The notes beneath the pieces were generated by a model. That model was given only the letters and a program-made list of their open reading frames with translations. It had not been told where the DNA came from and ran no database searches. The translations under genes and the position numbers were made by a program. A stretch of 64,000 nucleotides of DNA from Candidatus Methanoperedentaceae archaeon. GTDB lineage: Archaea > Halobacteriota > Methanosarcinia > Methanosarcinales > Methanoperedenaceae. Below, piece after piece: positions 5,344 to 37,224 of the stretch (its first letter is position 1; each line of letters begins with the position of its first letter). The DNA lies in the NCBI GenBank assembly GCA_003104905.1, contig PQAS01000042.1, positions 124,001 through 188,000 of the forward strand, read 5' to 3'.

Positions 5344-6159
5344 TCCCTCGTATTCCTTTTTCAATTTTAAGGCATCAATCTCCAGATTCGGGCTTTCACT
5401 TATTACATTGCCCTTAATATTGAATTCGCAAAACACACGGGCCAGCTCTTTGTAATTGAAATCGGAGTCTTCAAATTCAAGATGATTCTTTTCACCTTTG
5501 GGTGAATATTCTATTCCTGAAACGTGTATGTGCATATTGTCCAGGCCATCCCGTCCCAGCTTATTCTCAATATTGTTAAGTATAGCTGCGAATTCCTCAT
5601 GCGAATTATTTTTTCCACCCACTGCATGGAGGTGTGAGAAATCGATACATGGCAGGACACCTTCCACTTCTGTAATGCCAAGAACCTCTTCCAGGCTTCC
5701 GAACTGCGAATTTCGCCCCATTGTCTCAATACGAAGTGCAATGGCCAAGGCTTCGCCCCTCATTTGTTCACTGATGCCGGTCAGTTCCTGCTTGATCTTT
5801 TCGTATGCGCCAGACCGTGAATCTTTCTGAATGAAACCTGCATGAACCACGACGCCTTTTGCACCGCAAATTTGTCCAATCCGCGCAGAATTCAGTATTC
5901 TTTCCCTGCTTTTAAGCCTGGTTTCATCATCGCCATTAAGATTTATATAATATGGGGCATGCACGCTCAATCCAATATCAAGCTTCTGTGCAAGGAATCT
6001 TACCTTTCGCGCAGTCTCTTCCCCCATCTTTACACCGCGTACAAACTCAAGCTCCATGCACCCAAGACCGAGCTCATGAACCCGCCTTATCCCCGACAGA
6101 CTATCTTTGCCGATTGAGCTTACTGGCGTTCCCGCAGTACCAAAAAACAATCTATCCAT
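5326..6159 (-). CDS. Endonuclease IV/xylose isomerase-like TIM-barrel protein
   Basis: The 277-residue protein shows the AP endonuclease 2 (EndoIV, Nfo) TIM-barrel signature. There are metal-ligand-type segments SVHAPYYINL (about residue 65), VVVHAGFI (about 103), RIETMGR (about 143), PCIDFSHLHA (about 169) and MHIHVSGIEY (about 207), and a final SESPNLE. The family cleaves DNA 5' to abasic sites using three zinc ions, and these ligands appear retained. The ATG at 6159 sits directly after the rubrerythrin-like gene, whose stop is at 6160, so the two are one operon. Pairing with a peroxide-scavenging protein suggests a response to oxidative DNA damage (inference). Confidence 0.85.
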   Translation of the reverse strand: MDRLFFGTAGTPVSSIGKDSLSGIRRVHELGLGCMELEFVRGVKMGEETARKVRFLAQKLDIGLSVHAPYYINLNGDDETRLKSRERILNSARIGQICGAKGVVVHAGFIQKDSRSGAYEKIKQELTGISEQMRGEALAIALRIETMGRNSQFGSLEEVLGITEVEGVLPCIDFSHLHAVGGKNNSHEEFAAILNNIENKLGRDGLDNMHIHVSGIEYSPKGEKNHLEFEDSDFNYKELARVFCEFNIKGNVISESPNLEIDALKLKKEYEGSTCCK

Positions 6160-34452: not shown

Positions 34453-34478
34453 GGGAACTTCGGAAGTTCCCCTTTTTT
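34453..34478 (+). terminator. Terminator after the ribosomal protein/secY cluster
   Basis: gggaactt (34453-34460) and aagttccc (34464-34471) form an 8-bp stem with loop cgg and are followed by six T. It starts 26 nt after the secY stop. Confidence 0.85.
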
Positions 34479-34574
34479 CATCTTCTGAATAAGCATGGAG
34501 ACTTTCAGATAAAAACGGAACTATTAAATATCGTAATTTAAATCTATAATATATAGAATTGTTTGAGGAAAATT

Positions 34575-35669
34575 ATGAAAAATTCACGCAAGATCCTATT
34601 TGTCATTATTCTGGCAATATTTGTATCAGGATGTCTTGAAGGCAAGAAGGCTCCATCTGAACCAATAAACCTTGTGAAAATGAGCGGACAGGAGATGATA
34701 CAGAGATTAGGAACAGGGGAAATTGCCGGATTCATTATGTGGGAACCTTATCCTGCAATAGCTGTTACAAAAGGGTACGGAAAAAACTTTATTTTTTCAG
34801 GAAAAATCTGGACAGAACATCCCTGTTGTGTGGTAGCGTATGATGATGACTGGTATAAGAAGACAAATAATTCAGATGAGATCCTGAAGCGCATGGCGCT
34901 GGTTCAGTTAAAATCCGTGGAATACATAAATAATGCAAAGCAGAGCGATTCACCTGACCATGGCCAATTGATAAATTATACCTTGAAGTTTGGGGGGATG
35001 ACAGATCCGGCTGCGGCAAATATGAGTCTTGCCGATGTGGAATTTGTTTATAATACTAATGTTGCCGGGGCAACGACATTTATCCAGCGAATACAGGATT
35101 TTAAGATTTTCGACATGACGAAATGGAACCAATCAGGATATAAGAACGCTTCAGATTATGCAAATTCACTCATAACAAACGATTATGTTGAGTGGGCAAT
35201 CAATAACAAAGATGAAAATCTCTCGAAGCTTTCATTGAAAGAACCTGTCAATATCCGATATGCATACCTTGTTAATGATATTCATGAACTGCCATTCTAT
35301 GTAGGATGGCAAAGAGGATATTATAAAGATTTAGGAATAAATATTTCCATAGCTGAGGGTGCACCATTCCAGAACGGAGCTTTTGAGATGCAAAATGGTT
35401 TCAAAGCCAATACGGTTGATGTGGGAAGTCTTGGAATACCACCAGTAATTATTCACAGGATAAACAGCAATGATTTTTCCAAAGATGACGCACGCGTTGG
35501 AGTGATCGCAGGGATGAATAATGAAGGGTCGGTGATCGTTGTGGCCAATAACATTACCTCCATTAAGGACTTGCAGGGAAAGACAGTTGGATTCCCCGGC
35601 CCTGGTACTATACAGCATGTTCTTTTCCTTATGGAGGCAGAAAAGGAAGGACTTACGGTCAGCTATTAA
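34575..35669 (+). CDS. ABC transporter binding lipoprotein (NMT1/SsuA-like), circularly permuted
   Basis: The protein begins with a lipoprotein signal (ILFVIILAIFVSGC, lipobox VSGC at about 17-20). Start ATG 34575 has gagga upstream. Residues 28-220 correspond to the second half of NMT1/SsuA-type binding proteins: VKMSGQEMIQRLGTGEIAGF, MWEPYPAIAVTKGYGK and the HPCCVVAY motif, then long helices. Residues 223-364 correspond to the first half: IRYAYLVNDIHELPFYVGWQ, VDVGSLGIPPVII and SIKDLQGKTVGFPGPGTIQH, and the protein stops where the second half normally continues. The order of the two halves is thus reversed, with total length equal to one domain pair. The TAATG junction couples it to the permease. 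Substrate (nitrate, sulfonate, taurine or similar) is not determinable. Confidence 0.8.
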   Translation: MKNSRKILFVIILAIFVSGCLEGKKAPSEPINLVKMSGQEMIQRLGTGEIAGFIMWEPYPAIAVTKGYGKNFIFSGKIWTEHPCCVVAYDDDWYKKTNNSDEILKRMALVQLKSVEYINNAKQSDSPDHGQLINYTLKFGGMTDPAAANMSLADVEFVYNTNVAGATTFIQRIQDFKIFDMTKWNQSGYKNASDYANSLITNDYVEWAINNKDENLSKLSLKEPVNIRYAYLVNDIHELPFYVGWQRGYYKDLGINISIAEGAPFQNGAFEMQNGFKANTVDVGSLGIPPVIIHRINSNDFSKDDARVGVIAGMNNEGSVIVVANNITSIKDLQGKTVGFPGPGTIQHVLFLMEAEKEGLTVSY

Positions 35670-36475
35670 TGAAAATCCAGACCGGGAAAAAAGGATTAAT
35701 AATAAATCTCCTTTCCCTTATCGTTTTTGCGCTGTTATGGCAGCTGCTGGTGATACTTGCCAGGAAAGATAGTTTCAATATTCCGTTTATTCGCCTGCGG
35801 GACATTCCTACGCCTGTTGAAACATGGATCGCACTTGCTGGTTCGATGTTCATCCAGATACACGGACCCGGTTTCACATATGGTATCATCAACCACGTTT
35901 ATGCCAGTCTGCAGCGTGTGATCGAAGGCGGAATAATTGCATTTATCATTGGCGTCCCGGTGGGTATCGGTGTTGGATATTCAAAGCTTCTCAGAAACTT
36001 ATTCAATCCTTTGATTGAAATTGTCCGAAATATGCCTCCGATGGCATGGATACCGCTTTCGATATTTATTTTCGTATCCGGCGGGTCGATATTTATTGTT
36101 TTTATTGGTGTTGTTTTTCCCATAATCCTCAACACTGTCCAGGGAGTAAAATCAACAGATTCAAGACTTATTGACGCTGCAAGAACACTTGGAGCTTCAG
36201 AATCAATGATAGTAAAAAAAGTTATTATTCCTTCAGCTTTTCCATCTATTATGACAGGCTTGAGGATCGGACTTGGTGTGGGATGGATGGCAATTGTTGC
36301 AGCAGAGATGGTTATCAGGAGCCCTGTAGGCCTTGGTTATTTTATCTGGAACATGGGAGACCTGGGGCGCTATTCGGAAATGGTGGCAGGTATGATAGTC
36401 ATAGGCGTGATCGGATATATTATGAATATTAGCATCCTTCTTTTGCAGAGGAGGTTCATAAAATGGGGAGATTAG
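35669..36475 (+). CDS. ABC transporter permease (SsuC/TauC-like)
   Basis: A 268-residue permease with six membrane segments and the conserved EAA loop IDAARTLGASESMIVKKVII followed by PSAFPSIMTGLRIGLGVGW, typical of nitrate/sulfonate/taurine importers. The ATG overlaps the stop of the binding-protein gene by one base, and its last 13 nt overlap the ATPase gene. The N-terminal loop between TM1 and TM2 is about 50 residues long. It forms the membrane channel of this importer. Confidence 0.92.
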   Translation: MKIQTGKKGLIINLLSLIVFALLWQLLVILARKDSFNIPFIRLRDIPTPVETWIALAGSMFIQIHGPGFTYGIINHVYASLQRVIEGGIIAFIIGVPVGIGVGYSKLLRNLFNPLIEIVRNMPPMAWIPLSIFIFVSGGSIFIVFIGVVFPIILNTVQGVKSTDSRLIDAARTLGASESMIVKKVIIPSAFPSIMTGLRIGLGVGWMAIVAAEMVIRSPVGLGYFIWNMGDLGRYSEMVAGMIVIGVIGYIMNISILLLQRRFIKWGD

Positions 36476-37224
36476 TCATAAATTCAGTGTCCAAGAAATT
36501 CAATGATTTTCTCGCGCTTGAAGATGTTAATTTTGAAGTTGAAGATGGTGAGTTCGTGTGCCTTCTTGGCCCCAGTGGATGCGGAAAAACAACCGTTCTT
36601 CGCCTTGCTGCAGGGCTGGAAGAACCGGATGATGGCTTTTTATGCCTGGATGGAAAGAAAATATCCGGTGTCAATAAAGAATGTGGTTTTGTCTTCCAGG
36701 AATACGCCCTTTTTCCATGGAGGACCGTGAAAGAGAATATCGAATTCGGACCTCAGGTGAAGGGAAAGACCAGTTTGGAATGCGAAAGGATATCAAAGCA
36801 TTATATAGACCTCGTAGGCTTGAGCGGGTTTGAAAACCATTACCCTGATGAATTGTCAGGGGGCATGAAACAGAGGGTCGGGATTGCAAGGGCTTATGCG
36901 AACAATCCGAAGCTATTATTAATGGATGAACCTTTCGGGGCGCTTGATGCCCAGACAAGAAATCTCATGCAGAGTGAATTATTAAGAATATGGGAGAAAG
37001 AACACATAAGCGTGCTTTTTGTAACCCACAGCGTGGATGAAGCCGTTTACCTTGGAGATAAGGTTGTTATCATGTCAGCGCGTCCGGGTAAAGTTAAAGA
37101 GATATTCGATGTTAAACTGGCACGCCCAAGGATACGGACAGGCCCTGAAGCCAATATAATAAGGGACAGGGTTTTGAAATCACTTGTCAGTGAGATAAAA
37201 ATAGCATCAAAACCCGGGCAATGA
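36463..37224 (+). CDS. ABC transporter ATPase (SsuB/TauB-like)
   Basis: A 253-residue ATPase with Walker A GPSGCGKTTVLRLAAG at about residues 37-52, Q-loop VFQEYALFPWRTV, signature LSGGMKQRVGIARAYA, Walker B LLLMDEPFGALDAQTR and H-loop FVTHSVDEAVYL. These are typical of the nitrate/sulfonate/taurine group. It is the third gene of a three-gene importer operon; no regulator is adjacent. Confidence 0.93.
   Translation: MGRLVINSVSKKFNDFLALEDVNFEVEDGEFVCLLGPSGCGKTTVLRLAAGLEEPDDGFLCLDGKKISGVNKECGFVFQEYALFPWRTVKENIEFGPQVKGKTSLECERISKHYIDLVGLSGFENHYPDELSGGMKQRVGIARAYANNPKLLLMDEPFGALDAQTRNLMQSELLRIWEKEHISVLFVTHSVDEAVYLGDKVVIMSARPGKVKEIFDVKLARPRIRTGPEANIIRDRVLKSLVSEIKIASKPGQ

What the first reader, a model, noticed from the sequence alone, without database searches (positions are those of the whole stretch)
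34575..35669. Binding-protein subunit of an ABC importer appears circularly permuted
Seen: after a lipoprotein signal the protein starts with features that normally lie in the second half of NMT1/SsuA-like proteins (MWEPYPAIAV, HPCCVVAY). It then gives the features of the first half (LPFYVGWQ, VDVGSLGIPP, KTVGFPGPGTIQH), and ends exactly where the second half should follow. Total length equals one complete binding protein, and the gene is embedded in an intact operon with permease and ATPase. Known: periplasmic binding proteins are two-lobed and tolerate permutation. Inference: tandem duplication followed by loss of both outer halves while keeping the signal peptide.
Basis: partly seen in the sequence, partly recalled or inferred. 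Interest (0 to 1): 0.75.

Follow-up and report, generated by a model that had tools for sequence, protein, structure and literature searches.

The report
Circularly permuted archaeal transporter binding protein
In one branch of archaea, the protein that captures a nutrient for a membrane importer has its two halves in swapped order, the result of one ancient rearrangement that has been kept in working condition ever since and was later reused next to a sensor kinase.

Summary
Residues 25-123 match positions 161-256 of a canonical binding-protein model, and residues 217-360 match positions 28-162, with almost no overlap or gap. A profile comparison against a doubled canonical profile aligns the protein end to end and doubles the score, from 202 to 393. 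Pfam and NCBIfam agree. Predicted structures show the same order of elements, cut between two beta-alpha units of lobe 2.

It is not an assembly collapse: 19 independent Methanoperedens-type loci carry the same order at 73-93% identity. The arrangement is older than the genus. All 45 proteins tested are permuted and form one clade, spread over Methanoperedens, a group that contig lengths suggest is Archaeoglobaceae, and several other Halobacteriota families.

Most sit in an intact SBP-permease-ATPase operon. One sub-clade lies beside a sensor kinase, response regulator and winged-helix gene.

Natural permutation of binding proteins is already known (OpuAC, TpMglB-2). This is a further case, in the NMT1/SsuA family and at its own breakpoint. 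Substrate unknown. Bacterial chromosomes could not be tested.

The parts
34575..35669 (+). Circularly permuted NMT1/SsuA-like substrate-binding lipoprotein, 364 aa (alternative TTG start at 34563)
34575..34634 (+). Lipoprotein signal peptide with lipobox ...FVSGC (Cys20), retained at the new N terminus
   Evidence: sequence; Cys20 at least 90% conserved in alignment A1; Pfam LPAM_1 only 12.0 bits, below its cut-off of 20
34653..35186 (+). Module equal to the SECOND half of a canonical protein (residues 27-204): rest of lobe 2 (INLVKM..., WEPYP, HPCCVV) and the C-terminal helices
   Evidence: canonical model 161-256 on residues 25-123; hhalign 166-350 on residues 1-208; predicted E31-35 to H216-219
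35187..35246 (+). New linker (residues 205-224) joining the old C terminus to the old N terminus
   Evidence: alignment gap at the junction of the doubled profile; predicted short helices H205-210 and H216-219 with high confidence
35247..35666 (+). Module equal to the FIRST half of a canonical protein (residues 225-364): lobe 1 first half plus the first beta-alpha unit of lobe 2 (GKTVGFPGPGTIQHVLFLMEAEKEGL)
   Evidence: canonical model 28-162 on residues 217-360; predicted E225-230 to H346-357
35669..36475 (+). ABC permease (BPD_transp_1; nearest NCBIfam models SaoP, NtrB, TauC, all below cut-off)
36463..37224 (+). ABC ATPase (nearest NCBIfam models SaoA, TauB-type, PhnT2, NtrCD, all below cut-off)
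34453..34471 (+). Terminator-like hairpin (8-bp stem, T6 tail) between secY and the binding-protein gene; suggests the operon is transcribed on its own
   Evidence: consensus scan only; 3 found in the region, 2.4 expected

Best explanation
This is a working, membrane-anchored substrate-binding protein of a NitT/TauT-type ABC importer whose chain was circularly permuted once in an ancestor of these archaea. The old N and C termini, both in lobe 1, are now joined by a short linker. New termini were opened in lobe 2, between its first and second beta-alpha units. The signal peptide was kept or re-acquired at the new N terminus. Shown here: the order, its conservation, its single origin, and the operon. 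Inferred: the chain still folds into the same two lobes with the same two inter-lobe crossings; it binds a small substrate in the cleft and hands it to the homodimeric permease next door, and import is driven by the ATPase; the lipid anchor now holds lobe 2 instead of lobe 1. One sub-clade was later recruited as the likely extracytoplasmic sensor of a two-component system (wHTH, response regulator, dCache histidine kinase, then permuted SBP). The substrate is unknown; neighbouring genes in other archaea (mtnA; corrinoid methyltransferase sets) make a methylated or methylthio compound a reasonable lead, no more.
For: Profile order reversed with no overlap. Doubled canonical profile: one alignment over residues 1-364, score 392.9 against 201.9 and 195.4 for the halves. 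Predicted structure pLDDT 88.9, pTM 0.84, with elements matching a canonical control rotated at one point. Foldseek: the canonical relative has 1538 hits at E<=0.001 (TauA TM 0.70/0.81), the permuted protein 4, best TMq 0.37, as expected if only the order differs. Same order in 19 loci of genome contigs at 73-93% identity; 45 of 45 permuted and 39 of 39 canonical proteins keep their order. One clade, SH-aLRT 100. Both halves under purifying selection, pN/pS 0.10-0.23. SBP-permease-ATPase order kept across families. HK-linked cassette.
Against: There is no solved structure, and the model is a prediction from an alignment of 20 related sequences. Residues 124-205 are weakly similar to canonical proteins at sequence level: the canonical model's domain ends at residue 123, and only the profile-profile alignment extends through them. 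The canonical model was built partly from proteins found with the permuted profile, although Pfam and NCBIfam are independent of it. Substrate and transport are untested. The tree is a quick search with some long branches, and its root was not tested.
Confidence: 0.93

Rival explanations
1. Assembly artefact: two tandem canonical genes collapsed into one chimaera.
For: The product of such a collapse would look the same in one assembly.
Against: Same order at 73-93% identity in independent MAGs, in full-length high-scoring hits in most genomes of the family, and in large single contigs such as G290:C1 and G206:C1.
Confidence: 0.01
2. The protein is permuted, but arose by gene fission and later fusion of the halves in the other order, not by tandem duplication and trimming.
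For: No duplicated intermediate was seen: the full-length permuted open frames found are 331-431 aa. Half-length relics exist (L099, L100), but they look like decaying copies of already permuted genes.
Against: No free-standing half genes that complement each other were found. Duplication followed by trimming is the commoner route in the literature (general knowledge).
Confidence: 0.25
3. The permuted protein is no longer an importer subunit but mainly a sensor or another binding protein that happens to keep an operon with a transporter.
For: A sub-clade sits next to histidine kinases with no transporter genes at hand (L067, L068, L082-L084, L102).
Against: The window gene and most other loci outside that sub-clade sit directly before a permease and an ATPase, and these co-occur in nearly all Methanoperedens loci with enough flank.
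Confidence: 0.06

Closest known systems
NMT1/SsuA/TauA-type substrate-binding proteins (Pfam NMT1 PF09084, NMT1_2 PF13379; canonical relatives in this genome L092, L093)
   Same: Both halves match these families above Pfam gathering scores; same operon type; same predicted elements
   Different: The halves are in the reverse order; N and C termini lie in lobe 2; NCBIfam SsuA_fam and SaoX cut-offs are not reached
B. subtilis OpuAC (2b4l, 3chg) against L. lactis OpuA SBD and ChoX
   Same: A natural circular permutation of a two-lobed binding protein; chain reversal visible, permutation among glycine-betaine binding proteins reported by CPSARST (PMC2395249)
   Different: Glycine-betaine family; its N terminus begins at the strand KTIIGIDPGSG, which I equate with the beta-alpha unit that is the LAST one here, so the cut appears to lie about one unit earlier; no Pfam OpuAC hit for P0001 at E<=1
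Treponema pallidum TpMglB-2 / Tp0684, 'Type Ic' binding protein (PMC4990184)
   Same: A naturally permuted, lipid-anchored ABC binding protein shown to bind ligand and change conformation
   Different: Type I sugar-binding fold, cut in the N lobe, needs a fourth inter-lobe crossing; unrelated family
SaoX (NF040735), an NCBIfam ABC substrate-binding subunit
   Same: Residues 32-119 match SaoX 132-219; the permease and ATPase are closest to SaoP and SaoA
   Different: Score 40.9 against a cut-off of 300; canonical order

Membership tests
NMT1/NMT1_2 substrate-binding proteins | Sequence match above Pfam gathering score | tested here: met
   NMT1_2 66.8 bits (cut-off 24.7), NMT1 35.9 (20.5)
NMT1/NMT1_2 substrate-binding proteins | Canonical N-to-C order of the two halves | tested here: not met
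   order reversed
NMT1/NMT1_2 substrate-binding proteins | Two-lobed type II fold | tested here: inconclusive
   Predicted elements match a canonical control after rotation; no CP-aware superposition or solved structure
NitT/TauT-type ABC importer operon | Adjacent permease (BPD_transp_1) and ATPase (ABC_tran) | tested here: met
SsuA (TIGR01728) | NCBIfam curated cut-off 163.5 bits | tested here: not met
   51.9 bits in two pieces
OpuAC-type permuted glycine-betaine binding proteins | Pfam OpuAC (PF04069) match and OpuAC breakpoint | tested here: not met
   PF04069 absent at E<=1 for P0001; breakpoint placed one beta-alpha unit later (the unit equivalence is my reading of the two sequences)
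TpMglB-2 'Type Ic' | Type I sugar-binding fold | tested here: not met
   No Pfam hit to sugar-binding (Peripla_BP) families at E<=1; NMT1 families instead
Substrate-binding protein function | Binds a ligand and closes on it | not testable with these tools
   needs purified protein

The most novel reading that the evidence does not exclude
The permutation was selected rather than neutral: moving the membrane tether and both free termini from lobe 1 to lobe 2 changes how the protein presents itself at the membrane, which is why the rearranged form spread over several archaeal families and could be co-opted as the external sensor of a histidine kinase.
Probability: 0.15. Interest if true: 0.65.

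Novelty: new variant of a known kind. Interest (0 to 1): 0.5.

Why it matters
Naturally permuted binding proteins are rare documented cases. This one is clean (near-zero overlap, one origin, many descendants, canonical relatives in the same genomes), so it allows a direct test of what permutation does to folding, tethering and docking. It also explains why such proteins are split into two pieces, or missed, by profile and structure searches: Foldseek finds 4 instead of about 1500 significant PDB matches. A permutation-blind annotation pipeline will mis-handle a whole archaeal family, including proteins of Archaeoglobus-like genomes and ANME-2d methanotrophs.

Tried and rejected
Assembly collapse: rejected. 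Chance or compositional similarity: rejected by shuffles and rotated controls. Multiple independent permutations: not supported, one clade in a quick tree. A surviving duplicated intermediate: looked for in hit lengths, none. Bacterial permuted homologues: plasmid tblastn gave no match covering 80% of P0001; the best multi-piece hit for the Archaeoglobus-like query (Methylocystis) and a Deinococcus hit are canonical in order; a bacterial chromosome search could not be centred, so bacteria stay open. Substrate by literature: no paper in the library links Methanoperedens to this kind of transporter; the A. fulgidus methoxydotrophy paper names MFS and branched-chain ABC transporters in the passages read, not this one. 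Two family searches failed on a frame error.

Full report
What is there. The window belongs to a 2.9 Mb archaeal genome in 59 contigs. Its close relatives are named Candidatus Methanoperedens in public records. The gene at 34575-35669 follows secY and precedes a permease and an ATPase. Among the relatives examined only L005 has secY upstream of the gene, so the operon is not tied to that place.

Order of the halves. Pfam NMT1_2 positions 150-227 fall on residues 27-103, and NMT1 positions 5-109 fall on residues 239-350. NCBIfam SsuA_fam positions 8-127 fall on 234-360, and SaoX 132-219 on 32-119. I built a model from ten canonical relatives only. It gives residues 25-123 = model 161-256 and residues 217-360 = model 28-162. 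Rotating the protein back gives one domain of 137 bits; twenty shuffles give -0.5 bits or less; a canonical protein rotated in silico splits in the same way. Against a doubled canonical profile, hhalign aligns residues 1-364 in one piece with a score of 392.9, against 201.9 and 195.4 for the two halves on a single copy.

Structure. The AlphaFold2 model has pLDDT 88.9 and pTM 0.84. Its elements E31-35 to about H216-219 correspond to canonical E191-194 to H338-341, and E225-230 to H346-357 correspond to canonical E61-65 to H170-181 (control model). The cut is therefore between the first and second beta-alpha units of lobe 2. The old termini, both in lobe 1, are joined by residues about 205-224. 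In Foldseek against the PDB the canonical control finds 1538 chains at E<=0.001, led by TauA (TM 0.70/0.81), while the permuted model finds 4, with TM by query length at most 0.37. Foldseek aligns in sequence order, so this is what a permutation should do.

Reality and age. The same order occurs in 19 loci of public assemblies. Hits in the family search cover all 34 genomes at E<=0.001, though some of these genomes carry only canonical relatives. In the phylum sample 31 of 394 genomes have a match at E<=1e-20, including 19 of one family, f9; one of the 31, G211, is canonical (L098). That is my recollection of genome sizes, not a tool result. All 45 permuted proteins tested are permuted by the canonical model, and all 39 canonical ones with two matched pieces are canonical. 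Un-permuted in silico, the permuted proteins are one side of one branch (SH-aLRT 100). Both halves evolve under purifying selection (pN/pS 0.10-0.23).

Genomic settings. Most loci read SBP-permease-ATPase. Four (L065, L071, L072, L075) have the methylthioribose-1-phosphate isomerase gene mtnA nearby, in three of them directly after the ATPase. Four (L076, L077, L080, L081) carry corrinoid methyltransferase genes (MtaA-like, corrinoid protein, RACo-like activase, MtrH-like) upstream; L077 is cut by the contig end, and in L080 the corrinoid protein was not detected. One sub-clade (L067, L068, L082-L084, L102) follows a histidine kinase gene, which was dCache-HAMP-HisKA in the one examined, usually with a response regulator and a winged-helix gene further upstream. 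In the tree this sub-clade groups with transporter-linked forms (support 89), so recruitment from transport to sensing is the likelier direction.

How it probably works. It is a lipid-anchored binding protein that closes on a substrate and delivers it to the adjacent permease. With both new termini in lobe 2 the chain still needs only two crossings between lobes (inference from topology), unlike TpMglB-2, where a fourth crossing was needed (PMC4990184). The tether now holds lobe 2. Whether that matters is untested.

Against the known. Natural permutation of binding proteins is documented for glycine-betaine binding proteins (CPSARST, PMC2395249; order reversal re-checked) and for TpMglB-2. I found no report of a permuted NMT1/SsuA-type protein in the held library, which lacks most subscription papers. 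So this is a new variant of a known kind: a new family, a new breakpoint, a large archaeal clade.

Limits. Bacterial chromosomes and other archaeal phyla were not searched. The tree is a quick one. Substrate, binding and transport are inferred. The duplication route is not shown.

Noticed in passing
L082, L083, L084 (and L068, L102 in part): Conserved cassette of winged-helix protein, response regulator, histidine kinase (dCache-HAMP-HisKA where examined) and permuted binding protein, with no importer genes recognised at hand: a likely two-component system with an external binding-protein sensor.
   Followed up: partly
L076:1696-7282, L080, L081, L077: Permuted binding protein and importer directly after an MtaA-like / corrinoid protein / RACo / MtrH-like methyl-transfer gene set, suggesting import of a methylated substrate.
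   Followed up: partly
L065:8760-9791, L071:1643-2689, L072:1399-2442, L075:8438-9460: mtnA (methylthioribose-1-phosphate isomerase) next to or near the importer in four genomes: a lead to a methylthio substrate.
   Followed up: partly
L099:5114-5401 with 5549-5908; L100:5249-5536: Lone C-terminal relics (about 95 aa) of the permuted protein; in L099 beside the winged-helix gene with kinase and regulator missing, i.e. decaying cassettes.
   Followed up: no
L075:4950-5825: A canonical-order NMT1-type protein without signal peptide lies 65 bases upstream of the permuted gene; could be a cytoplasmic enzyme-like relative.
   Followed up: no
L101:1004-2379: A permuted copy appears broken or frameshifted, with its first half in frame with the end of the histidine kinase; could be a fusion or a sequencing error.
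   Followed up: no
L011:2413-2815: A gap of about 400 bases separates the binding protein from the permease, where other Methanoperedens loci have almost none.
   Followed up: no
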